A stretch of DNA of 64,000 bases from Diphasiastrum complanatum (taxonomy: Eukaryota; Streptophyta; Lycopodiopsida; Lycopodiales; Lycopodiaceae). The translations under genes were made by a program, and so were the position numbers. The notes below the pieces were generated by a model. It was not told where the DNA came from. It did no database searches and was given only the letters and a program-made list of their open reading frames with translations. The DNA lies in the NCBI GenBank assembly GCA_029204225.1, contig CM055108.1, forward strand, positions 19,410,279-19,474,278. Direction: 5' to 3'. Of this stretch, positions 14,396-63,480 are shown in pieces; position 1 is the first letter of the stretch, and each line of letters starts with the position of its first letter.

Positions 14396-17600
<3,205 letters not shown>

Positions 17601-18215: not shown

Positions 18216-20366
<2,151 letters not shown>

Positions 20367-27279: not shown

Positions 27280-28260
27280 ATGGCCAACTTACCAGAAGAA
27301 GTCATGGATGAGTTCACATCGAGCCATTATCCAACTGATGAGAACAAGTCATATGTCTTAGATCTAAGGTAAATCAAGATCCTGGACCATCCAGATGGAG
27401 ATCTAATCAATTTGATAACCCTGATGATCATCATGTTCAACATGCTCACCATATCGCAAGATCCGATAAACGAATACCTAGATTGGAATTACCAAAGTTC
27501 GACAGTAATGTGGACCCTCATAGATTTTTACAAGTCTTTGAGAATGCATGCAAAGTATATAGAGAATATACTGACAATGCAAAAATCCAACTATTATTAA
27601 TGACCATGGTGAATAAAGCACGAGAGTGGTTTTTTTAACCTCGATTGTGATGATAGACAAGATTGGTCAAATCCAAAAGAGTCTTTTATTAAATGCTTCC
27701 AACCTTTCAGACTCACAGAAAGCCCTTTTGTACGCCTTAGTAATATAAATATCAAAAAAGATGAACGCGTACGTGAATATATTGAGTGATACAAGCATCT
27801 CAGAAGTCAAGTTCAAGAACAACCAACTAATAGAATGTTGATCATATGGTTTCTAGTTGGCCTTCCAAGACGCATCCGGAAAGAGCTTAAACCTAGCAAA
27901 GAGTATTTTACACTTAAATCTGCTATGTCCGATGCTATTCGTGAAAAAGATGAAGGATCTGATGATGAAGACCATAAAGAGAAAAGAGCTCATCGAGTTT
28001 TTAATGAAAATCGTCCAAGTGAGCCAAGAGATTTAGACGCCTAGAAATCGCAGTTCGAGTTAATGAATCAACAACATCAACAACAGATGGAGAAACTCAA
28101 AAAAGAGTTTCAGCAAGGCTTAAAGTGTATTCAGAGTTAGTTGCCAAGGCAATTGTTGTCTGATGACGCTATCCATAGGCGAGAAGACACCTGGTGCCCA
28201 CACTATCGTGGCATTAGAGAAAATTTGGGCCAAAGAGGGCCCTATAAGAAATGCCATGTA
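27280..28260 (+). pseudogene. Ty3/gypsy gag remnant
   Basis: The ATG at 27280 opens MANLPEEVMDEF but meets a stop after 30 codons. Further on, frames give KFDSNVDPHRFLQVFENACK, NKAREWFF, and after a shift SFIKCFQPFRLTESPFVRL, a spaced REYIE, MLIIWFLVGLPRRIRKELKP and a charged tail with EKDEGSDDEDHKEKRAHR. This is the Retrotrans_gag pattern of a helical capsid followed by a basic-acidic linker. Several stops interrupt it. Protease and pol do not follow; the next recognisable sequence is unrelated, so the element was cut short or interrupted. Confidence 0.75.
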
Positions 28261-28613
28261 GGAGAGAGAAAACTATAAAGTAATTTTAATATCATTTTCT
28301 AACTTCTTTATGCATCTGCCCGCACTACTTTCCATGTGAATGAATGCACCTTAGTTTAGTCACATCAAACTTCACTGGTGCTTAACCATAGTTAGACTAT
28401 AATTTTTTAAAATGCTGAAATATTCTCTCCCAATAGTTGGGAACACTCAAAAATTTGAATTAGGAGTGACATTTCTGAAAAAAGCCTACGCCATCTCTAT
28501 CTCCAGGGTCAAAAACAAGTGTTTAGCGCCATCTCTATCTCCAGCAAAGTCGTTAGCACCATCTCCATCTTTGTTATTGTCATTGTGTTGTTTGTTACTA
28601 TACTACTGTACTG

Positions 28614-31397
28614 ATGACAAAGCTTTATCATTTTCATGTGGATCTATCACCAGAATATGCTCCGCTTAGGACAAGAAATTCAAAGCAACCCAAATTGTCA
28701 ACTTCTGATATGGTCCGATATAGGGAGGAAAAACTAAAGCATGTAGATTTATGGTCATCAGGAACATTGTATCCTATTGATCCATGTTCATTGCAACATC
28801 CAGATTTTCATTCGGTGAGTCAATTAATAATCTTTATGTGTCATAGTAAAAATGGCCTTTTGGGTTATTGTGAGAGTTTGATGCTCTATGGGAATGCACA
28901 TTCAATGCAAAGAATACATTATTTGGAAGATGAATCAAGAAAAATATCAAAGGAGTGCGAAGAATAATTTACAAAGATGGAAACTTGTTTGGATGAAAAT
29001 GAGATGCTCAAGAAGAAGATCCAAAGGTTGAAATCTTCTTTGCATCATTATACAACTAGTAATGATGAGATAAAAATTGCATTTCAATCTCTGCGTATCT
29101 CATATTTGTCTCTTGTTAAAGATATGGATGTGCTCAACAAAAAGGTCCGAAGCAACAAGAGGAAAAGACTGGTAAACAAGGATATATGTGATCTATCATC
29201 CAGAGGAGGTCATAGAAAAAGACGAATCCATGCATTCAAGTAAGTTATAGCTTATTTGGTAATGAATATTGCTTGAACTTTTTGATTCATTCATAATCAC
29301 TAATTTTGTAATTTATTCATTTCAACTTTCTGTTGATTTGCTTATTATATACTGCTGTGAATACTATGAGTGTCCTAATTTCTACTGACATTTACATGAA
29401 CATTATGTTTGCAATGCATATCAGCATTGGTTGTTGAAGACCATTTGGCTGATGAGATTTCAATTGGAAACTCACTAGGCTCTATCTTGACTTCTAAATC
29501 TATGAAATCAATGTTAAATAATAACAAAATGAAAAAGATTAAGGCTTCAGTTACTGATAGCATTATGGATGAAGTTGGAAAAATATTAGACACTACATTG
29601 CTTCAGGGGGCATGTGACTTTTCTAGCATCAGTAGGGAAGCATATGCAACAATGTTTAAGATGATAAAGGAGCCATTTGCACAGGTAAATACTAAAAAGT
29701 TTCCAATCCCACGACCATTTCATCTTTTTAAAAGAAAGAGACATGTTAAACCAAGGTATGCAGACAATAGTTGGTAATCCATCTCATATCAATGAAGTGT
29801 ATTGCTCAAAGGGAGAAAGTCTAGCTTATAACAATTCCAACAATTTATTTATTGACATTAATCAATTATTAACATTCATCATAAAGTTTTATGGTATTAC
29901 AAATGAGAATGTCAATAACAAGTTGATAGTTGTTCTCAAGTTAGATGAGTCTGAAATTATAAAAGGACAAAAAATGGAAAGAGTCAGTCTCACGATTATG
30001 AATGGAGCACTTTCAAATTCAGAAGACTCAGAAGGCCTCAATTTCAGTGTTCAATCAGAAAATGATATTTGGTGGTTGGTAGCATTTCAGGTATAGCAGT
30101 TCCTTCGCATAATAAATAGAGATAATCATTTGAATATGGATTTCATATGGAAAATTTTCTCTGTGTTACTATTATGAGGCTAATCATGTTTTTGTATTCT
30201 CTTATAGGTGCTGAAAGAAGACCATGACATTCTCTCATGGATATTTAATAGAACATCATATCCTGCCACCATAAAAAAAATCACATGGAGGGAGTTCCAC
30301 TCAATATCCTGGAATTGACACTTTCAACATTGAATGGCATTTACCAGGAGATCTTAAGACATTAAAATATATGTTCAATGTATCTCATGGCGCTAACTCT
30401 AAACACCCTTGTTTGTACTGCATGAAAACAACAAAAGACATGACAAGGAGTATATGAATATCAAGAGATCGAGAAGATCCTAATTGGAAACTTGTACTAC
30501 CGATTCCTCTATGAAATGTTCATATCTGTACATTGCATGCGGATGTGTATTATAGAAAAAATAATATATCTTCACATCTTGTTTGCATGGAATTCGAGCC
30601 ATAGGCCTCTACGAAGGAAGCTATTTCCAGATTAGAGGATGTGTTGTCCAAAGCAGGCTTACATAAAGGCCACGTTAAAATAAAAAAAGATGACAAGCTA
30701 TCAGGTAAAACAAGAAATATCCATGCAAGCCGAGCATTGGAGGATCTAAAGCTCGAAGATTTTTATCAAATTATTCTGGCAAACAATCCAAGGTTCAATA
30801 CACGGTTTGGAAAGAAATTACTGCAGCAACTCAAGATTTCGAAAAAGAAGGTTCTACTCGTATACACAAAGTAGAACTTTGGAAAAAGTTAGACAACATG
30901 GTGAAATACTTGAGAAAAGATAAATTTTCAAATACTAATGTACAAATGATACAGAAAACAACCAATGAATTTGTAGATGCAGTTCAAAGTGCATGGGGTG
31001 TTGATCATATAGCACATTATATGGTAAGATTTTGATTTTACACTACAATAGACAAATGTGTGCAATTAAATTAGATACTTTTGGTACTGATTTAGATTAT
31101 GTTTTTATGACATGAAGCACATATTACGACATCATTCAACATTCTTTGCAAGAAATAGTGAAAGTCTTAGCATATGGTCATCGCAAGGAATGGAAAAATC
31201 TCATTGGCAAGCAAGAGCGGCATTTCATAAAAGTACACAACATGGCGGAACTAGCACAAAAAACAGCTATATACTGCAACTTTTTCAATGGTTTTATAGA
31301 AGAATCCAAGTTCGTCATAATACAAAATCGACGAATTATAAAAATTTTCAAAAAGCATGCAAATTTATACAAGTTAGTAGGCTTTAGACACACAATA
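28614..31397 (+). pseudogene. Broken intron-bearing gene of unplaced, transposase-like family
   Basis: Segments in order are LYHFHVDLSPEYAP (28614 on), a coiled-coil-like stretch (28977-29239) and LVVEDHLADEISIGNSL to FAQ (29427-29684). These are followed by IVGNPSHINEVYCSKGESL to AFQ (29767-30090), VLKEDHDILSWIF (30208 on), and, after a shift in an A-run, IEWHLPGDLKTLKYM, SHGANSKHPCLYC, VHICTLHADV, and SLSIWSSQGMEKSHWQARAA with LQLFQWFYRR. Introns 29685-29763 and 30091-30207 have GT-AG borders and join in phase 0; a further donor-acceptor pair at 29240/29424 is out of frame by one. Stops at about 28965, 30458 and 30512 show decay. The HGANSKHPCLYC pair of cysteines and the late QGMEKSHW block suggest a large DDE-like or domesticated transposase, but I cannot name the family. 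Confidence 0.6.
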
Positions 31398-31507
31398 TAA
31401 TTTTGTATATTAAATAAAAATATTTACAAAGTACAATTTAGCAGTATCTAATTTGCTTCCGAAACCTTTGTGACAAGAGAGATTGTTTTGTCTCAAGATG
31501 CTACAAA

Positions 31508-33392
31508 ATGAAGATCAATCCGTCCAAGGAGAACCAAAGCAAGGGGGCCGAAGTGAAGGATGGAGCTTCAAGTTCAAAGTGCAAAGGCAAGAAGGACAAA
31601 TCGAAGGAAAGGTGTTTCCTTTGTGGAAAGATGCATGAGGCTTGGAGTCTCACAAGGACTTACAAGATTTGTCTTCAAAAGTCCATCATCACACATTTCA
31701 AACCTTTTGAAGTTTTGCATTCGAAAGTGAATTTTTTGGTTCAAGATGCAAAGATAAATGTCACTTTCATTAATGTCACTTGGATTTATTTCATGTCCTT
31801 GGAAAGCATTTTGTTTAGAACTTTAGAAAAGTTCAAATTTATTGTTATGATCCAAGAGAAACCAAGAAAGATTATGGAGCAATCACAAAATGAAAATAGT
31901 TTCATTTATGCTCTCATGAAATCTTATGAAGAACTATTTTGCTTTGAAGAGATTTTTGTATCTCAAAGGTGGATTAAGGCAATACTAGTTGAGTGTGATG
32001 CCTTAATAGATAGCAAAGCATGTTTTCCTTGTAAACTTACATTGAATATGAAGTCAAGGAAATGGAAATGTCTTCATAATGTATTTTTCGTTGGTTTCAA
32101 TAAGATCATGAATGATGTGTTCATTCATAATGTTGAAGATTGTAAATTTTCAATTTGAAAGGCAAGTTGTAAACTTCTTATGAGAATAAGTGAAGCATCC
32201 AAAGTGGACACTTATATCCATAAGCAAGTAGTTAGCCTTATTGAGATGGAAATACTTCTTGATTTCAATATTAGAAAAATCATGCCAAGTTGTGGTGATT
32301 TTTGGACTTATGTTCCTAGCATAAGTAATGTTGATGATCACATGAAGTACACATTATATGATCATGTTTGTTGTGATCATTTTGAGACATGGAGGTCTTG
32401 GATTTCCATCAAGGAGGAGCACCAAGAAGTTGATCTTGAGGAGTCATCTCGAGGTTCAAGTGTGCCAAGGATTGAGGAGGAGAGTCCTTCTCAAGTTATG
32501 ATTCCAAGAAGAATATCAAGAGACATGGTTGAGCTCATATGGCTCACATTTCAAGGGAAAGAGGAGCACATTTCAAGTAGTATACATCTCATGGTTGCTT
32601 CTCTTATGTCATTTGGTGAATCAATTTGCTTTAGTGAGACTTTTGCATTTCAAAGTTGGAGTAAAGCAATACTAGTTGAGTACGGTGTCTCTCTTGAGAA
32701 CATAGTTGATGTTCTTAATGATATGAAATTGATTTTAGATCAATTAGAAAGCAAATGGTTATTTCATCAAATGTATGCTCTTGAGTCTTGCAAGAGCATG
32801 AGTGAGTTGTCCACTCATAGTGTGAAAAATTGTCTTTTTTCATGTATTGAGGCAAATTGTAAACTCTTTATGAGAGAAAGTGAATCATCCTCTAAGGAAA
32901 CTTATCTCCATAATGAATTATCTAGCCTCATTAGATCTGAGATTATCATGGTAACCAAGCATGAAGATATGATACAAACTCTTTGTTATTATAGCATGCA
33001 TAGTCTTGCCAATGTTGATGAGCCTAATCCTCGAGATCTTGGTAACATGATGTTGGATCTTTGTGATCCTCATGAGTCAAGAAGGACTCTTTATTTTATC
33101 ATGGAGTTGTAGCTATTTTCAAGGAGGAGGAGCTTTTGGATCAACCATATGGTTCAAGGATGGAACAAATCAAGGAAAGAGGTGCTAGGATGGTGCAAAG
33201 CTCTCAAGTTCATCAAAAAAGTCAACATCAAAGAGGCATTATCATGGATACGGTGATTTCGGATCGACATCAAGCTCATTGGCTGATCTTCACACCTTTG
33301 AACCAGCAAGGATCCATATTTGAAGACCAATTCAGCTCATGGAGTCAATCTCAATATCATCATATTTTTATCGAGTTAGTTTTGAGGAGGAG
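31508..33392 (+). mobile_element. 3' internal region of an LTR element with an internally duplicated ORF
   Basis: The first frame (31508-32155, 215 residues) opens with a lysine-rich stretch and a knuckle-like CFLCGKMHEAW that lacks its last Cys. After one stop the frame changes and runs 310 residues (32180-33112), with a further 92-codon frame (33136-33414). No protease, RT or integrase is visible. Two related blocks, about 31905-32240 and 32587-32950, share FxSxxWxKAILVE, a K-W-hydrophobic run, HxVxxCxFS, ANCKLxMRxSE and TYxHxxxxSLI. The sequence ends in a polypurine tract (GAGGAGGAG) that abuts the LTR at 33393, placing it as the 3' end of a plus-strand LTR element, perhaps non-autonomous. 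Confidence 0.6.
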
Positions 33393-45169: not shown

Positions 45170-46385
45170 CTCTCTGGCCCACCCTCAATTTTCATCACTG
45201 CCGTCACTCCTTCTGGTGCACATGGATGATGATGGATGTCTCTCTTTAGATCCAACTACTTTGTAGTAACAGTACTGAGTGCTACTTCATGGTTTTCCTC
45301 ATATAACCAGCAATTTAAGTCTGAAAAAGACCCCCTCATTTGAGCAGCATTGGCCTCATTATGCAGTTTTCATTCATTACACCCAAATCAGTGTGAAAGT
45401 CAACATGCTGTCACTCACTCTGATGTGGAAAGGATTGTGGGTTGTTGAGGTGTGGTCAGTTTAGCTGCAGGAAGTGTTGGAAAAGTGAGTGCCCAGCAAC
45501 TGCTTGCATCTGCAGAAGTGTGCAAGAACTGCCTATGAAGATGAAAAAGTGCTCAATGGATCAGAAGTGTTTGAAGGTGAGTGTTGATCTTTGCAATGCT
45601 GGGTTGTGGCTAGATTGGCAGGCCATTGGGTATTCAGTATAGGCTAGACTCAGGACTCAGGAATCCTGACTCCTCAGCCTCGTTTGGACACTGATAATTG
45701 GAGATCAGATGGAGGAGAGGGTCCCACTACTGATCTGCAGTCAGTCTACAGCTGGTTGGAAGAGACCTCGTGAAGAATGTTGTCTTGTAGCTTGTTTACT
45801 GTTTGCATTCTGTATTATGCTGTAATACAAGAGCCAGATCCTTGCAGCATTTATCAATGCCATGCCAAGATTCACGTCCAACAAATCTCTCATCCCCTGT
45901 CCATTGTATTGTGTTGAGCAGCTCAATGATATAGCAGCAGCTGAAGCCTGAGAGCCTAGATTAGGAGAGGAGCGAACGCTCACAAAGCTGTAAATTTTCA
46001 GGAGATCTCGATTCAGGAGCTGCGGTTGAGGAGGTAAATGTTGAAGTGAGCGTCGGAATCCGGACAGTTAAAAGGTTGGCCAGAGTGTTCAAAGATTAAT
46101 GGTTTTAGACAGAGAGCAATTCATTCTGTCAGTTCTGTGCTTATTGTTTGATACCACCTTTTTGCTCGCAGGTAGAAATCGACGACATGTGGGTGCCGTG
46201 GATATCACTCCTCTCCTCCAATGGTTTTCTCTCTATTGATAACTCAGCATGAAGTAAAATTAATCTGAAAGGTATTTCTCTGCAGAACTAGAAAGCGGAG
46301 ATTGTTTATGCTGTATCAAAAAGAAAACCTTGCATGCCAACTCTGTGCATGCGAGAGTTGATTCTAAGCATTTTGGACAGGCAAA
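45170..46385 (+). promoter_or_regulatory. Upstream region of the receptor kinase, possible 5' UTR intron
   Basis: A CT-rich run lies near 45155-45175. A possible leader intron 46034-46171 has donor GTAAATG and acceptor TTTGCTCGCAG after a pyrimidine-rich stretch. No TATA box can be assigned with confidence, and no transcript data are available. Confidence 0.3.
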
Positions 46386-49300
46386 ATGGCCTATCGCAAT
46401 ACGTTTCTCCGACCATCATCTCTGCTTCTGATCCTTTTCTACTGTTTACACCTAACACCGATAGTTTTCTCTCTCTCTTCTGATGGAGAAGCTCTTCTAG
46501 CCATGAAAGAATATTTTTCAGATGAATACAGGTTTCTAGAAGACTGGTCACGATCTGATCCTACTCCTTGCAAGTGGACTGGCATTGCCTGCGATTCCAA
46601 GAGCAATGTGATCGCTCTGGAACTTGCCGCGTTGAATCTGACTGGAACGATCTCCAGTCACATTGGCCGTCTCACCAGCTTAATCAACATCTCACTTGAG
46701 ATGAACAACCTAACAGGTAGTTTGCCTCAAGAATTGGGAAGTCTCGGTGAGCTTCGCTTCCTAAACGTCTCCCACAACAATTTCAGTAATCTATTCCCTG
46801 CCAATCTATCTGGGCTTCAAGTTCTTGAAGTTTTAGATGCTTACAACAACAATTTCTCTGGCGGGTTACCAGCTGACTTAGGAAAGCTTACAAATCTTCG
46901 TCATCTCCACCTTGGAGGGAGCTACTTTGCAGGCTCTATCCCACCTGAATTTGGTGGCATGAAACGCTTGCAGTATTTAGCTCTTTCTGGAAACTCGCTC
47001 ACTGGAAGGATCCCTCCAGAACTGGGGAACCTTACTCACCTACAGTATCTCTACCTTGGCTACTACAATGTTTACGTAGGGGAAATTCCTCCAGAGCTTG
47101 GGGGACTGAGAAGCCTGATTCGGCTAGATCTCTCTTATTGTGGGCTTTCTGGAAGCATCCCTCCCTCTCTAGGAAATCTGACGAAGCTAGATTCACTCTT
47201 CTTGCAAATCAACTCTCTAACTGGAACCATTCCATCGGAAATAGGCAACCTTTCCAACTTGAAGTCTTTGGACCTGTCAAACAATGGGCTCACTGGAGTG
47301 TTACCTGCAGAGTTTGTAAGCTTAACCAAACTGGAGCTTGCAAGCTTTTTTCGGAATCAGCTGCATGGAGAAATTCCTTCATTTGTGGGTGACCTGCCAA
47401 ACCTTCAGGTTCTCTTTTTATGGGCTAACAACTTTACTGGAAATATTCCTCAAAAGCTAGGCCAAAATGGAAACCTCCTAAGAGTAGATCTTTCGTCCAA
47501 TTCTTTCAGTGGAACTATACCTCCTTATCTCTGTGCTGGAGAGAACCTGCAAATCCTTGTCCTCCTTGAAAATCAGCTGACTGGCTCAATTCCAGAACAA
47601 CTTGGGCACTGTAACAGTCTTGTGCATGTCAGACTGGGGCATAATCAGCTTACTGGCTCCATTCCTCGGGGCTTTCTTGGGCTTAAGAACGTTGAGATGC
47701 TTGAGCTAGTGGGAAATCAGCTGACTGGTGAAATCCCTGAGATTTTTCAAGCTCCTAGTTTGGAATTTCTGGATCTTTCAGAAAATCATTTATTTGGAGT
47801 TCTTCCGGAGGGTCTAGGCAACGTGACTAGCTTGAAGAATTTGTTTGTTTCAGGGAACCATATTACGGGAAACATTCCAAGGAGTATTGGAAAGTTGGGC
47901 CAACTCTTTAGTCTGGATCTTAGTGATAATGCCTTGAGTGGATCAATCCCTGTTGAGATCAGCAAGTGCCAAAGCCTCTCTTCCTTGGATTTAAGCAGGA
48001 ACCAGCTGACAGGGAAAATCCCTCCTGAGCTTGAACGTCTGCAAGTGCTGGACTTTTTGAATGTATCGAGGAACCACTTAAGTGGAAGCATACCTTTTCA
48101 ACTTCAGCTTTTACTCAGTTTGACAACGGTTGATTTTTCCTACAACAATCTGTCAGGTCCAGTTCCAGTTCACGGACAGTTTGAGTATTTCAACTCAAGC
48201 TCTTTCCTTGGAAACCCAGGCCTGTGTGGTGAGGAACTGACCCCTTGCAGTGTAGGTGTTGTAAGTGCAAGGGGTCCCTCTTCATATCACCAGAAGATTA
48301 AGAATGAACCAAATCTTCTAGCTTGGCTTGTGGGTGCCTTATTCTCAGCTGCTCTGTTAATTCTTATCATTGGTATCTGTTGCTTCTTGAAAAAGTATCA
48401 GCAGTTCATGTGGGGCTTTTTTAGAAAAGAGAGCAACATAAAGCCCTGGAAACTAACTACGTTTCAGAGGCTTGACTTCAGTGCCAACAATGTCCTAGAC
48501 TGCTTGAATGAAGATAACATTATTGGCAGGGGTGGTTCTGGAATAGTGTACAAAGGTGTCATGCCATCTGGTGAGACAGTTGCTGTGAAGAGGCTATCAT
48601 CCCAAGGGAGGAAAGGTATTGCACACGATCATGGTTTCTCCGCAGAAATACAAACACTTGGAAAGATACGGCACAGAAATATTGTGAAGCTGTTGGGATG
48701 CTGCTCAAACCATGAGACAAATCTTTTGGTGTATGAATACATGCCGAATGGGAGCTTGGGTGAGCTTCTTCACGGTAAGAAGGGGGCTTTGCTGGACTGG
48801 ACAACTAGATACAAGATCTCAGTTCAGGCAGCAAATGGACTTTGCTATCTCCACCACGATTGTTCGCCACTCATCGTGCATCGTGATGTCAAATCTAACA
48901 ACATTCTCCTTGATTCTGATTTTGAGGCACATGTAGCGGATTTTGGACTGGCAAAGCTTTTCCAGGTTTCGGGAAAATCACAGTCTATGTCTTCCATTGC
49001 AGGATCATATGGCTACATTGCCCCAGGTATCTTCAGATTATTACAGTATCATCATTTCCCCGTGATTTAATATAATTTTTATTTCTTATGTTAGTTCTAG
49101 TCTGTGACCTTCAACAAGATAATCAGATTATAAAGATTATTATGTTTGAAGAAGGTTCATCTATTCATCTATTTATGACTAGATTAGCAACTCCCCAGAT
49201 AGTCATTAGCATTTATATATGTTCTAACAGTTAGCTTTGGTTGTTTTGGGATTGTGCAATCTGTGTTTTATTGAGCCAAGATGCATCCACAAGCTGCTCA

Positions 49301-49733
49301 ATTAGCTTCAAAAGCTAGATAGTTGCAAAGGCTAATAATCTCTTGATTCTGTGCAGAGTACGCTTATACGCTTAAGGTCAATGAAAAGAGTGACATTTAC
49401 AGCTTTGGTGTTGTCCTTCTGGAGCTTGTAACTGGTAGAAGACCGATAGAACCAGAATATGGGGATGGTGTAGACATAGTTCAGTGGGTCCGGAAAAAAA
49501 TTCAAACCAAAGATGGAGTCCTGGATGTGTTGGACTCAAGAATGGGAAGCTCAAATCTTCCTCTGCATGAGGTAATGCTCTTGCTAAGAGTTGCTCTACT
49601 GTGCTCTAATGATTTGCCAGTTGATCGGCCTACAATGCGTGATGTTGTACAAATGCTTTCTGACGTAAGACCTAAAGATAATGATTGCCAGCAAGGAGAG
49701 AATTTGGTGTCTAAAGATCTTGTGAATGTCTGA
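46386..49733 (+). CDS. CLAVATA1/BAM-type leucine-rich-repeat receptor kinase (LRR-RLK subfamily XI)
   Basis: Exons 46386-49026 and 49357-49733 join within a Glu codon to 1005 residues, the usual CLV1/BAM size. Residues 1-30 form a signal peptide. An LRR N-terminal cap ([19 protein letters not shown]) is followed by about 20 leucine-rich repeats without an island, including [19 protein letters not shown] and [19 protein letters not shown], blocks typical of CLV1/BAM. A membrane helix spans about 645-667. The kinase has all key residues: G-loop GRGGSG from 714, Lys735 in VAVKRL, HRD at 832-834 (an RD kinase) with KSNN, DFG at 852-854, and APE spanning the intron. Family members bind CLE peptides and limit stem-cell or vascular proliferation from the plasma membrane; the ligand here is unknown. 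The intron position in the activation segment matches the family. No frameshift is seen. Confidence 0.95.
49027..49356 (+). other. Receptor kinase intron (330 bases)
   Basis: Donor GTATCT follows GCC-CCA-G, and acceptor CTGTGCAG precedes AG-TAC-GCT; the join restores [12 protein letters not shown]. Reading through the donor gives only a short tail and a stop. Confidence 0.92.
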
Positions 49734-53290: not shown

Positions 53291-54066
53291 TGCTGGGGAA
53301 TGCTTAGAAAATTTCCTCGGTGCGTGCACTACCGGTTAACAGACACAAGAATAAGTTAAGAGTTTGATTGCACGGTGGTTGCGGAAGCAAAGAGCAGAAA
53401 ATCAAACAAAGCAATCAGAAAGTCGGACAAGAAGATGTAGTAACTTAAACATACGATATTGACAAGAACTATGAACGCAAAATACAATAATTCATTCAGA
53501 TTAATGTAGGAATACACGTCAGTTTGATGCTACGAGCACAAGACAATAGCGGACGAAACCGCGTGCTCAAGAAGCTAACTCCGCTCTATAAAAGCTATGA
53601 GCTTATTACTAACAATCTGTCTGAAGAAAGAATCGATGCATGAAAGCATCTACAATGTCTGTCTCATTAACTACATACATCATCAATAATTGATTACAAT
53701 GATCAACTATATACAATTTACATTTGTGCAGATGTATGTACAAAAGAATGTTGTAGAAAAGAATGGCGTGAAGTTCGTTGTGTCGTCAGGAGGAGATCGT
53801 GGCCGACTGCTATCATTGTCAAGTTAGTTTTATAGTACAGGAAGCGAACGTGAGGAGGTTCGATAAATCAAACTTTTTCGATATGCAGGGTCTACCCGAT
53901 AAGTTGTCCAACTCTGACAAGTCAGGTTACTTCAATGAGTCGGACTGCCATTCTCTTCTTGTCTTCAGTTATAGACGACTGTGCGCAACAATGCATGTAA
54001 TGTTGCAGCAATGAATGGAACTAGATTAATATGGGATTTAGGAGAGTAGAGGAGGTAAATCCAACA
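53291..54066 (-). repeat. 3' LTR (776 bases) of the nested copia
   Basis: On the minus strand TAAGAGGTT (polypurine tract) precedes TGTTGGATTTACC at 54066; the other end is TGCTGGGGAATGC at 53291 on the plus strand. Bases 53291-53654 match the partial 5' LTR at 57732-58104, including TCCGCAACCACCGTGCAATC-like and TAGCATCAAACTGACGTGT-like blocks on the minus strand. Confidence 0.85.
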
Positions 54067-57731: not shown

Positions 57732-58104
57732 TGTTAAAAAATGCTTAGAAAATTCCCTCGGTGCGTGCACTACCGGTTAATAGTAGGCGAACACAAGAAT
57801 AAGTTAAGAGTTTGATTGCGTGGTGGTTGCGGAAGCAAAGAGCAGACAATGGGACAAAACAATCAGAAAGTCAGATAGGAAGACGTAGTAACTTAAACAT
57901 ACAGTATTGACAAGAACTCTAAATGCAAAAGACAGTAATTGATTCAGATTAATATGTAGGAATACACGTTAGTTTGATGCTACGAGCACAAGACAATAGC
58001 GGGCGAAACCGCGTACTCAAGAAACTAACTCCGTTCTTTAAAAGCTATGAGTTTATTACTGACAATCCGTCTAAAGAAAGAATCGATGAATGAAAGCATC
58101 TACA
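57732..58104 (-). repeat. 5' LTR of the nested copia, lacking its first half
   Basis: 373 bases matching 53291-53654 with scattered differences. The match ends at TCTACA (58104), where the interrupted plus-strand copia resumes. The missing part corresponds to the U3 promoter end, about 400 bases of the 776-base LTR. Confidence 0.85.
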
Positions 58105-58385
58105 AGCACCATCACATTTTGATCGACCAAATGTTCGTAGATCCTCACGGATCCGAACAGTTCCTGAGAAGTATACACCTCAATCTTTCTAGACTTCGTC
58201 AAAAGAACCAGAGACCCTAGCCAAAGCAATTAACTCCAAGGATGTTGTGAAGTGGCAAGAAGCTATGAAAAGCGAGCACAATTCACTTTTGAGAACCAAA
58301 ACTGGACATTGGTCGACTTCCCCACTCACAAGAGAGTCATCGACAACAAGTAGATCTTCAAGAAGAATATCAACTTTGATGGGCT
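58105..58385 (+). pseudogene. Right half of the interrupted copia (reverse transcriptase start)
   Basis: Plus-strand frames read APSHFDRPNVRRSSRIRTVP, EPETLAKAINSKDVVKWQEA, AMKSEHNSL, then after a shift ENQNWTLVDFPTHKRVIDNK and IFKKNINFDG. This is the segment that follows integrase in copia pol, so it continues the element ending at 53290. The match stops at about 58385. Confidence 0.85.
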
Positions 58386-58596: not shown

Positions 58597-59150
58597 AAAA
58601 CGTCAAACCTCACAATGATAATTACTTTCCATTGAATGAATTTTTGAAAACAAAATGCTCAACCTAGAATCAAAGGAATAGCATAGAACCTCTACATATC
58701 ACATCACTTCACACTCATCATATAGAATGTTACCTCATGCAATCTTTCAAGAGTGAAATGACATAAAGCATGATACTTGATTAAGTGAAATCCTCAACTC
58801 TTGGAGACTCTTAATCAACATGAGTACCTCTCAAGATGGATCCAAAACTGCTAACTCTCAAAAATACCAACTCCCAAATTAGCAACTCATAACAAACCCT
58901 AACATGGAGTGATTCCCAAAAGTACCAACTGGAGTGGGCTCCTTCTTATAGTAAATTCCAATGGATCCCTTTCACAATGCCACCTTGCCATTCTTCATGC
59001 CCTTCAAGCCCTTTCCGCCATTTGTGCCCATCCCATTGGATAGTACACCTAGTGGCCTCATAAGAAAGCGAAAAAATCCAAGATGTCATTTTTGTCAAAA
59101 GCTAGGGAGGTCATTCAAAGCTCCCCCTGTTGTACACCTAGAAGCCCCAA
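58597..59150. repeat. Left copy of a direct repeat flanking the Penelope-like element
   Basis: It shares long blocks with 62989-63480: CCTCACAATGATAATT, GGAATAGCATAGAACCTCTA, ACATATCACATCACTTCACA, TGCAATCTTTCAAGAGTGAA, AACTCCCAAATTAGCAACTC and GTGGGCTCCTTCTTATAGT. The first 300 bases are about 90% alike; the last part diverges. 58386-58596 has no match. Confidence 0.8.
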
Positions 59151-59832: not shown

Positions 59833-61440
59833 CTATGAGATGATCACTTTGTATGAGCTGAAAAAAGGCCTATTGGATGAAAGATGTATAAACTGGAAGT
59901 ATGTAAATGGCAGCTCTTTTCTCTTATCATATTGTTTCATGTGAAAAGTCCCTGAAATAGGATCAAATGTAGTAGTAATATTTAGAAAATTCACAGTTTT
60001 TTTCTTGATACCTTCATTTCTTATAGTTAAGTATTCAAGTGGGTAAATCCAGATAGGGTTATCGTTGGTACGTGGTTGCTCCTTGTCAAGAAACAACAAG
60101 GCGTTCGGATTATTTATAAAACATATATCATCTATGTATCGAAAGGTATTCTTGAACGACTGTAGATAATTCAATTCAGCAAGCCTGGCTAATCTTTTCA
60201 TAAATTGTAATTCATAAATATGCCAATTACACCACGTAGGAGAACAGGAGAAACCCATGGGTATCCCATATACCTGCCTCGAGGTCTTATTTTTCAATCT
60301 AACTATACAGTTGTCAATTAATGCATCATTCCATTGGCATGTTTGCATCTTATCAATACAAGTCCATTTCTTTGTAGATTTGTTTTTCCATTTCCATTTG
60401 AATTCACCATAACGTGATTGCCATTTGTATGCAAGCAAATCATTCTTAGTGTATTTGAAGGAATATATAATTACGTATTATCATCTTTAAACCATCTTGG
60501 CCATTTAGAGAGATGTTTTCATAACGGCTATAAATATTGGTAGACCACATGGATGTGATTTTTCTTGGACCATTAAGGTAGAATTCAGTGGAAGAGTTGC
60601 TTTGTCAGAATAAGTTAGTATCCACATTTAGGATCATCTTGTACGTATTTGCCTTAAGGCCTGATCCCTCCATGAGGAGCGGAGTCGGCATACCAAGAGC
60701 TCTGTAAGAAATGTGGCATTGGTAATCCATCTGAAAGAATTATTATGTGCTTTATAGGAACATAGTAGGATTTTTTCGAGTAGATTTTCTGGTATATTTT
60801 TTGTAAAGGTTTGTCTTGTGATTTCATTGCGTTGTTGATAGTATTATTTTTTTCATTTGGAAAAGGGACGAAATCTGGACTGGATAGTCTATCTAAAGCC
60901 AGTTTTTTAACAAATTAACACCATTAATTACATTCATCTGTTGTATCTTTTAACTTTCTACCAGTTAGACGACGTGCATGTAATCATTTGATTTTCTTTA
61001 GAAAATTAGTAACAGTAGACTTGCAAAGAAGAGCATGTTCAAAAATTGTATCATCATCAATAGTTTGATATACATGTAACAACTTAGCTAATCTCAACCA
61101 TCTCTGATATATTTTAATGGCAACTTCATTTATGTTTGATTGTCGAATTGGGATATGATTAAGTCCTTTATTCAAATTGTTTCTTAAAGACTTGTTATTC
61201 ACAATGTTGGTATCCATAGAAACCACATGCCCAAAATTCATAGAAACAAAATCCTTGAAGCATTTGGTAGTCGAACAAATACAAGATGGAAAATCATCAA
61301 TATCGAATTCACAAAAGACTTGAAGAGATTTGTACCATTCATGTTTCATATGTGGAAAATAAGTCCAACCAAAAACAATTTGCTCAAACGTATCATCAAT
61401 GGAACCAAATAAATGAAATAAAGTCTCGGTATACAGCTAT
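59833..61440 (-). pseudogene. Penelope-like element (PLE) reverse transcriptase remnant
   Basis: On the minus strand, 61440-60984 gives a WTYFPH-like block, MKHEWYKSLQVF, DFPSCICSTTKCFKDF, FGHVVSMDTNIVNNKSLRNN and KGLNHIPIRQSNINE. This matches the region before the RT in PLE proteins, with its C-x-C, H-V, D-x-N-I and LR...KG-HIP signature. After a decayed 0.5 kb, one 201-codon frame (60438-59833) carries VYGIPMGFSCSPTWCNWHIY, FRYIDDICFINNP, NPIWIYPLEYL, TVNFLNITTTF and YDKRKELPFTYFQF, with FIHLSSNRPF near its end. YIDD is the RT catalytic box, and the long run after it is characteristic of PLEs rather than copia, gypsy or LINEs. I see no GIY-YIG endonuclease, so the element is truncated or endonuclease-deficient. 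Confidence 0.75.
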
Positions 61441-62988: not shown

Positions 62989-63480
62989 AAACGTCAACCT
63001 CACAATGATAATTGCTTTCCATCGAAGAAATTTTAAAAAAAAAAAAAAAAAACATTCTCAACCTAGAATTAGAGGAATAGCATAGAACCTCTACATATCA
63101 CATCACTTCACACTCATAATATAGAATGTTACTTTATGCAATCTTTCAAGAGTGAAATGACATAAAGCATGATAATTGATCAAGTGAAACTCTCAACTCT
63201 TGAAGACTCAAAACTACTAACTCTCAGAAATACCAACTCCCAAATTAGCAACTCATAACAAACCATAACATGGAGCAACTCCCAAAAGTACCAACTCTGA
63301 AAAATACCAACTCTTCAAATACAAGGAGTGGGCTCCTTCTTATAGTGAATTCCAACGGATCCCTTTCACAATGACATCTTGCCATTCTTCATGTCCTTTA
63401 AGCCCCATTTGTCCCCACCCTCATTGGATAGTAGACCTAGTGACCTTCATAAGAGAGTGGGAGAGTGGTGCATTCAAAGC
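62989..63480. repeat. Right copy of the direct repeat flanking the Penelope-like element
   Basis: Same order of blocks as 58597-59150, with an A-run near 63036-63051 and a short extra duplication of AAATACCAACTC near 63217-63310. After 63480 similarity is lost; the last 520 bases include a minus-strand 127-codon frame (63978-63595) that I do not recognise. Confidence 0.8.

What the first reader, a model, noticed from the sequence alone, without database searches (positions are those of the whole stretch)
28614..31397. Intron-bearing, transposase-like gene relic of an unplaced family
Plus-strand segments over 2.8 kb form one ordered protein. Two GT-AG introns (29685-29763 and 30091-30207) join the frames exactly in phase 0, so this was a spliced gene, not retroelement pol. 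Late blocks HGANSKHPCLYC, VHICTLHADV and SIWSSQGMEKSHWQARAA with LFQWFYRR look like conserved cores of a large family. It is now broken by stops and an A-run shift. It could be a DNA transposon gene or a host gene family amplified in early land plants.
Basis: partly seen in the sequence, partly recalled or inferred. Interest (0 to 1): 0.75.

Follow-up and report, generated by a model that had tools for sequence, protein, structure and literature searches.

The report
Jumping gene carrying a histone gene
The broken gene in this plant-like DNA is a dead copy of a jumping gene found in well over a thousand places in the same genome, and many of its other copies also carry an altered histone H3 gene (a DNA-packaging protein), hinting that the jumping gene may interfere with how its host packs DNA.

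Summary
The window copy (28212-31462) is a 3'-truncated, decayed copy of a DNA transposon. The window's frameshifts and two of its four stops are private. The element has CATTAG...CTAATG inverted ends: 1,665 left-end and 1,169 right-end hits genome-wide, controls 0 and 4. Seven opposed pairs of ends, 5.3-14 kb apart, show no target-site duplication. The protein has no significant Pfam, NCBIfam or PDB match. Candidate D, D and E residues, C(2)C and H(3-4)H motifs and CA..TG ends fit the signature printed for the CACTA/Chapaev/Transib/RAG1 (CMCT) clade, but the 2-5 bp duplication is missing. Unexpectedly, 12 of 20 fetched copies also carry, downstream on the same strand, a divergent histone H3 gene with a long extension (Pfam E 9e-16); linkage is 23 pairs within 15 kb against 0.4 expected. 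One subfamily-B locus has H3 fragments too. The only precedent found is a fungal hAT transposon. Most likely: a CMCT-like lineage carrying its own histone variant. Function is inferred; no structure could be predicted.

The parts
28212..31462 (+). 3'-truncated copy of the transposon (subfamily A)
   Evidence: Homology starts at 28211-28214 in 13 of 20 fetched copies and stops at 31462 in 13 of 20 and at 31460 in one; other copies continue with more element DNA
28212..28243 (+). left terminal inverted repeat, CATTAGAG..., with a GGGCC(C)/GGGCCC inverted pair
   Evidence: End motif found by strict pattern in 14 of 20 fetched copies; 1,665 genome hits with up to 2 mismatches, control 0; right end matches its reverse complement at 25 of 33
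28614..29239 (+). exon 1 (ATG at 28614; TAA at 28965 in the window only)
   Evidence: AAA in 20 of 20 other copies at 28965; homologous exon in subfamily B
29240..29419 (+). intron, phase 2 (GTAAGT..TGCAG in most listed copies, TGCAT in the window)
   Evidence: AG in 12 of 17 listed copies; joins the frames
29420..29684 (+). exon 2
   Evidence: AG in 19 of 21 A copies, 79 nt in L013 and L014; but 81 nt, open and without AG in B copy L038
29764..30090 (+). exon 3; candidate catalytic D1 (KLDESEI) at 29944-29946
   Evidence: D in both A and B; codon checked
   Evidence: AG in 21 of 21 copies; GT and TATAG at the same site in B copy L038
30208..31023 (+). exon 4; candidate D2 (GDLK) at 30350-30352, C(2)C at 30410-30421; window lesions: A8 run 30273-30280, one base lost near 30720, stops 30455, 30512, 30602
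   Evidence: GT in 16 of 17 and AG in 11 of 14 listed non-gap copies; same site in B, GTGCTA..TTTGCAG, 89 nt
31118..31387 (+). exon 5; H(3-4)H motif 31118-31135, candidate E (WSSQGMEK) at 31193-31195, TAG at 31385
31462..31463 (.). point where the window copy is cut short; other copies continue with element DNA, including the histone H3 gene

Best explanation
The feature is a dead, 3'-truncated copy of a cut-and-paste-type DNA transposon. A fuller element, 5' to 3': a 33-bp inverted end; a spliced transposase gene (768-codon reading); a region of roughly 600-bp direct repeats; a gene on the same strand for a histone H3-like protein (H3 fold plus a long C-terminal extension, at least 376 codons); a further open frame; in the one fetched copy that reaches the right end, antisense open frames; then the right inverted end. 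Shown: copies, ends, gene model, decay, H3 homology, linkage. Inferred: the transposase is an RNase-H-fold DD(E) enzyme of the CACTA/Chapaev/Transib/RAG1 (CMCT) type that binds the inverted ends, cuts the element out and reinserts it. Also inferred: the histone variant is loaded onto element DNA, or used at the target, to weaken silencing or steer insertion. The transposon claim is about 0.95 likely, CMCT-like chemistry about 0.6, the chromatin role about 0.3.
For: Copies at 92-95% identity and 6,717 first-look candidates, 40 scored. Left end shared by 14 of 20 fetched copies. Left-end 21-mer 1,665 hits, control 0; right-end 21-mer 1,169 hits, control 4; seven left/right pairs in the expected inverted orientation 5.3-14 kb apart. 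Right end matches the inverted left end at 25 of 33; best of 20 shuffles 20. Spliced majority frame without stops. A versus B 46% identity over 773 columns, with the D, D, C(2)C, H(3-4)H and E candidates kept; two introns at the same sites. H3: Pfam E 8.7e-16, 35 of 77 identical to a PDB H3.2 chain without gaps; majority frame of 11 copies open for 376 codons against 18 and 27 stops in the other frames. Linkage: 150 transposase and 150 H3 hits give 23 pairs within 15 kb, expected 0.39; 21 of 23 on the same strand, 20 of these with H3 at +2.2 to +4.8 kb. H3 fragments on the transposase strand in one B locus. CMCT signature as printed in PMC12730594 (passages).
Against: No target-site duplication: 0 of 7 pairs have an exact one of 3 bp or more (one has 2 bp), although CMCT elements make 2-5 bp. 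No significant Pfam, NCBIfam or PDB match for the transposase. The RAG1 comparison is weak: hhalign probability 6.7, E 0.0054 over 35 columns; 0 of 150 shuffles reach its score of 28.2, but the best shuffle has 27.6 and the reversed sequence 23.5. All 21 aligned copies have at least one in-frame stop. Codon positions give no consistent sign of selection in the transposase (third position highest in 3 of 8 exon blocks) or the H3. Intron 29685-29763 is not kept in B. The right end was read whole in one copy (L024); otherwise support is its genome count and seven short end stretches. The H3 link in B rests on one locus. Some hits are near-identical duplicates (L017 and L019 are 99.7% identical), so counts of copies and linked pairs are not all independent. 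No structure could be predicted.
Confidence: 0.77

Rival explanations
1. The element is a transposon, but the histone H3 gene is passive captured cargo (transduplication) with no role in transposition.
For: Capture of host gene pieces by transposons is common (general knowledge); copies of the H3 frame decay without codon-position bias; the fungal H3L case was reported as transduplication with possible drift (PMC3538342 passages).
Against: The majority frame stayed open for 376 codons and exists at large copy number (6,785 first-look candidates; 150 of 150 scored at 88% or more). H3 fragments also lie in one B locus although the A and B transposases are only 46% identical.
Confidence: 0.45
2. 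It is a retroelement (LINE or similar) on the minus strand that carries the gene in antisense, with its 3' end at 28212.
For: Many copies share a fixed left end while the matched part ends at different places on the right.
Against: Several of the differing right ends are internal deletions followed by more element DNA; a matching inverted right end exists with 1,169 hits; none of the element blocks scanned matched an RT, integrase or gag family in Pfam.
Confidence: 0.03
3. It is a host gene family amplified by segmental duplication, not a mobile element.
For: Intron-bearing gene with two recurring intron positions.
Against: Shared sharp ends with unrelated flanks apart from the near-identical pair L017/L019, very high copy number, and decay in every aligned copy.
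Confidence: 0.02
4. The transposase does not use DD(E) chemistry (for example a recombinase of the Crypton type, recalled), which would explain the missing target-site duplication.
For: 0 of 7 target-site duplications of 3 bp or more; no profile match.
Against: D, D, C(2)C, H(3-4)H and E occur in the order described for CMCT transposases; CA..TG inverted ends; Spy-type elements, a DDE group by PMC12730594, also lack duplications by their cited title.
Confidence: 0.12

Closest known systems
[quoted passage not shown] CA..TG termini (passage of PMC12730594; here)
   Different: no duplication of 3 bp or more in 7 of 7 pairs; only a weak profile match to RAG1; carries a histone H3 gene
H3L-carrying hAT transposon of Pyrenophora tritici-repentis (PMC3538342, passages read)
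   Same: histone H3-like gene between the inverted ends of a DNA transposon, with a further open frame; a diverged H3 that by that paper is neither canonical nor CenH3
   Different: fungal, about 5.6 kb, hAT transposase, 10 long and 16 short copies; here a plant-like genome, usually longer, no hAT match, thousands of first-look candidates, and an H3 with a long C-terminal extension
Transposons that encode chromatin modifiers: TET/JBP in fungi, SET in HarbingerS, Vandal/MuDR anti-silencing proteins (PMC12730594, passages read)
   Same: a DNA transposon that carries a chromatin gene
   Different: there enzymes or regulators; here a nucleosome component
Lanisha (Repbase Reports 2020; seen only as cited in PMC12730594)
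   Same: placed in CMCT and similar to EnSpm according to PMC12730594
Spy (PHIS superfamily; title seen as cited in PMC12730594)
   Same: DNA transposon without target-site duplication
   Different: PIF/Harbinger-related; the C(2)C/H(3-4)H signature and a histone gene are not described for it in the passages I read

Membership tests
TIR DNA transposon | terminal inverted repeats at both ends | tested here: met
   25 of 33 against the inverted left end, best of 20 shuffles 20; end counts 1,665 and 1,169, controls 0 and 4; seven opposed pairs
TIR DNA transposon | target-site duplication | tested here: not met
   0 of 7 pairs with an exact duplication of 3 bp or more, one with 2 bp; 0 of 7 with at most one mismatch at 5-15 bp
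CMCT clade | C(2)C after the second D and H(3-4)H before the last E | tested here: met
   PCLYC and HILRHH/HILLHH in A and B, in order; definition from PMC12730594
CMCT clade | CA..TG termini | tested here: met
   CATTAG...CTAATG
CMCT clade | 2-5 bp target-site duplication | tested here: not met
   0 of 7 at 3 bp or more; 1 of 7 at 2 bp, about chance
CMCT clade | DD(E) catalytic residues on an RNase H fold | tested here: inconclusive
   D, D and E candidates conserved between A and B; structure prediction not available
Transib/RAG1 | sequence similarity to the RAG1 core | tested here: inconclusive
   hhalign probability 6.7, E 0.0054, 35 columns; 0 of 150 shuffles reach it, best shuffle close; no Pfam or PDB hit
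Transib/RAG1 | 5-bp target-site duplication | tested here: not met
   length from PMC7204232 passages
hAT (as in the fungal H3L element) | hAT transposase or dimerisation domain | tested here: not met
   no hAT family among Pfam matches at E up to 10
Lanisha | transposase similarity to Lanisha | not testable with these tools
   no Lanisha sequence in the collections on hand
histone H3 | H3 histone fold | tested here: met
   Pfam PF00125 E 8.7e-16, 58.7 bits against a cutoff of 26.4; PDB H3 chains E about 1e-14
centromeric H3 (CENH3) | lengthened loop 1 (recalled, from no call) | tested here: inconclusive
   77-column ungapped match to H3.2 speaks against a loop insertion; no CENH3 sequence was compared
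retroelement pol | RT, integrase or RNase H of a retroelement | tested here: not met
   no such Pfam match in any element block scanned

The most novel reading that the evidence does not exclude
A new plant lineage of DNA transposons, CMCT-like in motifs but without target-site duplication, has for long carried its own histone H3 variant with a long C-terminal extension, in at least two subfamilies. The variant would build distinctive nucleosomes on element DNA or at target sites, shielding the transposon from silencing or steering it. Fungal hAT elements would have recruited H3 independently, which would make a self-encoded nucleosome a convergent transposon strategy.
Probability: 0.3. Interest if true: 0.88.

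Novelty: new variant of a known kind. Interest (0 to 1): 0.66.

Why it matters
Transposons are known to carry enzymes that alter chromatin marks (PMC12730594, passages), but a plant transposon that carries a core nucleosome component in many copies did not appear in my searches (open-licence PMC papers, top listings only). One fungal precedent exists with a different transposase (PMC3538342), so recruitment of H3 by transposons may have happened more than once. If the variant is loaded on element DNA, it would give a direct test of whether a transposon can write its own chromatin. The transposase is unplaced in Pfam and combines the CMCT signature with missing target duplications, which bears on how that clade integrates.

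Tried and rejected
Minus-strand LINE or retroelement with its 3' end at 28212: considered after because left ends are fixed and right ends differ; dropped after searches showed internal deletions followed by more element DNA, and one search counted the right end.

A fifth intron at 30705-30826: assumed; rejected (123 nt in 12 of 20 other copies; conserved in B).

One search showed that 29685-29763 does not; 30091-30207 and 31024-31117 do. The first intron (29240-29419) was not checked in B.

A private stop at 28968: I first counted the wrong codon; the stop is at 28965.

Right end from L018 (GAGCCCATATTTCTCCTAATG): later shown to be the left end of subfamily B in reverse; its 614 hits count B left ends.

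A Helitron-like end (hairpin then CTAA) was considered on reading and dropped once a matching inverted right end was found.

Relatives in viral contigs and genome contigs: none confirmed. Pfam near-matches (BLYB, HALZ and others) lie below cutoff.

Organism: hits on contigs up to C23 at tens of megabases and 1.74 Gb in all suggest a clubmoss such as Diphasiastrum to me; this is recall, not tested.

Full report
Observation. The window lies in an unnamed 1.74-Gb genome of 5,176 contigs; 'plant' is my reading of the gene content, no name being given. Reading the three forward frames confirms the ordered blocks of 28614-31384. A DNA search of the genome returned 45 matches, the window's own included; the other full-length ones are 92-95% identical, from 6,717 first-look candidates of which 40 were scored. 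I fetched 20 copies with flanks (L009-L028); L017 and L019 are 99.7% identical to each other and share flanks, so they may be one locus assembled twice.

Boundaries. Homology begins at 28211-28214 in 13 of 20 copies, and the left flanks are unrelated apart from L017/L019. The strict left-end pattern is present in 14 of 20 copies; L012 is largely N on that side, and five others lack it. The window copy stops at 31462, while others continue for several kilobases with internal deletions and roughly 600-bp direct repeats. A right end was read in one fetched copy, L024, and matches the inverted left end at 25 of 33 positions; the best of 20 shuffles gave 20. Genome counts: left-end 21-mer, up to 2 mismatches, 1,665, control 0; right-end 21-mer, up to 2 mismatches, 1,169, control 4. 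From the listed places of those two searches (about 100 each, not all hits) I picked by eye seven pairs in the expected orientation, 5.3 to 14 kb apart. None shows an exact target-site duplication of 3 bp or more, and one shares 2 bp.

Gene model. Aligning the window with 20 copies gives four GT-AG intervals: 29240-29419, 29685-29763, 30091-30207 and 31024-31117. In the spliced majority reading, made before I recognised 30705-30826 as coding, there are 0 internal stops in 727 codons against 45 and 57 in the other frames. That stretch is 123 nt in 12 of 20 other copies, 5 of these without a stop, and its protein is conserved in subfamily B, so the full reading is 768 codons. The window has TAA at 28965 (AAA in 20 of 20 others), A8 instead of A6 (20 of 20 others), one base lost near 30720, TGA at 30455 (6 of 21), TGA at 30512 (3 of 21) and TAG at 30602 (window only). 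Each of the 21 aligned copies has at least one in-frame stop. Third codon positions vary most in only 3 of 8 exon blocks. The copies look neutrally decayed since insertion.

Second subfamily. A divergent relative was found beside two fetched copies and read in L036, L018 and L038. Its left end begins CATTAGGAGAAATATGGGCTC; the reverse complement has 614 hits with up to 1 mismatch, control 0. Its spliced protein is 46% identical to A over 773 columns. A search with its D1 region gave 203 matches from 10,258 first-look candidates, 150 scored. In the B copy L038 two introns lie at the same sites as in A: 30091-30207 (GT..TATAG) and 31024-31117 (GTGCTA..TTTGCAG, 89 nt). The counterpart of 29685-29763 does not look like an intron there: 81 nt, open, with no AG at the boundary; it is read through in the L018 B copy as well. 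In A it is 79 nt in the window, L013 and L014. Either it became an intron in A, or A copies share a frameshift.

What the protein is. No significant Pfam, NCBIfam or PDB match was found. Between A and B the conserved blocks include KLDES(E/K)IIKGQK, WHLAGDLKTL, SKHPCLYCMK, CTLHAEVRIIEK, KPSIGG(S/A)KARRFLSN, THYMHIL(R/L)HH and GSLSIWSSQGMEKSHWQAR. [quoted passage not shown] A profile comparison with the mouse RAG1 core aligns DHITHYMHIL..WSSQGMEK with GKITNYFHKTL..WASEGNES, at hhalign probability 6.7 and E 0.0054. None of 150 shuffles reached its score of 28.2, but the best had 27.6 and the reversed sequence 23.5. I count this as suggestive only. The same passage gives CMCT elements a 2-5 bp duplication, which is not met here. 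I therefore say it works like a CMCT transposase, not that it is a proven member.

The histone. Downstream of the transposase, on the same strand, a frame in L026 matches Pfam core histone at E 8.7e-16 (58.7 bits, cutoff 26.4) and PDB H3 chains at about 1e-14, 35 of 77 identical without gaps. tblastn finds at least part of the histone fold in the element of 12 of the 20 copies (L009, L010, L011, L016, L017, L019, L020, L021, L022, L026, L027, L028). L018 has a reverse fragment outside its element, and L023 keeps only the C-terminal part within its element. In 11 of these copies aligned (L019 left out), the majority frame is open for 376 codons against 18 and 27 stops in the other two frames; substitutions show no codon-position bias. 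A genome search gave 6,785 first-look candidates; all 150 scored are at least 88% identical. Of the 150 listed transposase hits and the 150 listed H3 hits, 23 pairs lie within 15 kb against 0.39 expected; 21 are on the same strand, and 20 of these have the H3 at +2.2 to +4.8 kb. Some of these places look like duplicates of each other, so the pairs are not all independent. In the subfamily-B locus L036, two H3 fragments lie on the strand of its transposase, with a putative LTR element in between. The long extension has no Pfam match in the piece scanned (L020:8440-8982).

Mechanism. Shown: an element family with inverted ends, a spliced transposase-like gene, and a linked H3 gene. Inferred from the motifs: DD(E) cutting at the inverted ends. 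Inferred from parallels only: a chromatin role for the H3. PMC3538342 (passages) describes a hAT transposon with an H3-like gene in a fungus. PMC12730594 (passages) describes transposons with TET/JBP or SET genes and plant Vandal families with a regulator of their own silencing. My searches for a transposon with an H3 gene listed no other case; they cover open-licence PMC papers, and I saw only the top listings.

Limits and changes on checking. No structure could be predicted. The right end and the antisense frames near it were read in a single copy. The seven pairs were chosen from truncated lists, and their interiors were not read. No other eukaryotic genomes could be searched.

Noticed in passing
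L023:89-343 (minus strand): A second, different H3-like sequence (Pfam Histone E 5.4e-28) about 2.9 kb left of a transposon copy and on the opposite strand; it may belong to a host gene or to another element.
   Followed up: partly
L024:1652-3195 (plus strand of the locus, antisense to the element): Open frames with splice-like junctions just inside the right end (starting MAPSKKLCSS..); no Pfam match in the five pieces scanned. Possibly a third element gene.
   Followed up: partly
L020:9604-9960 and L026:8799-9050: Another shared frame after the H3 gene (EPYT.DDVYRFRQ.L.RTYAQYGVSVA..); no Pfam match for the L020 copy.
   Followed up: partly
window 59833-60477 (minus): Frame with RQVYGIPMGFSCSPTWCNWHIYELQF and FRYIDDICFIN, which by eye and recall looks like a Penelope-like reverse transcriptase.
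   Followed up: no
window 53299-53668 / 57740-58118 and 58606-59011 / 62996-63405: Two sets of direct repeats, each about 4.4 kb apart and 86-95% identical: perhaps LTR-type elements.
   Followed up: no
window 46368-49733 (plus): LRR receptor kinase gene, CLAVATA1/BAM-like by eye, with a 900-aa open frame followed by a second kinase piece.
   Followed up: no
window 14400-14519 and 18218-18367: Long TC and GA repeats in inverted orientation about 3.7 kb apart.
   Followed up: no
window 27280-28211 and 31490-33112: Gag-like remnants on both sides of the copy; by eye they look like two different retroelements.
   Followed up: no
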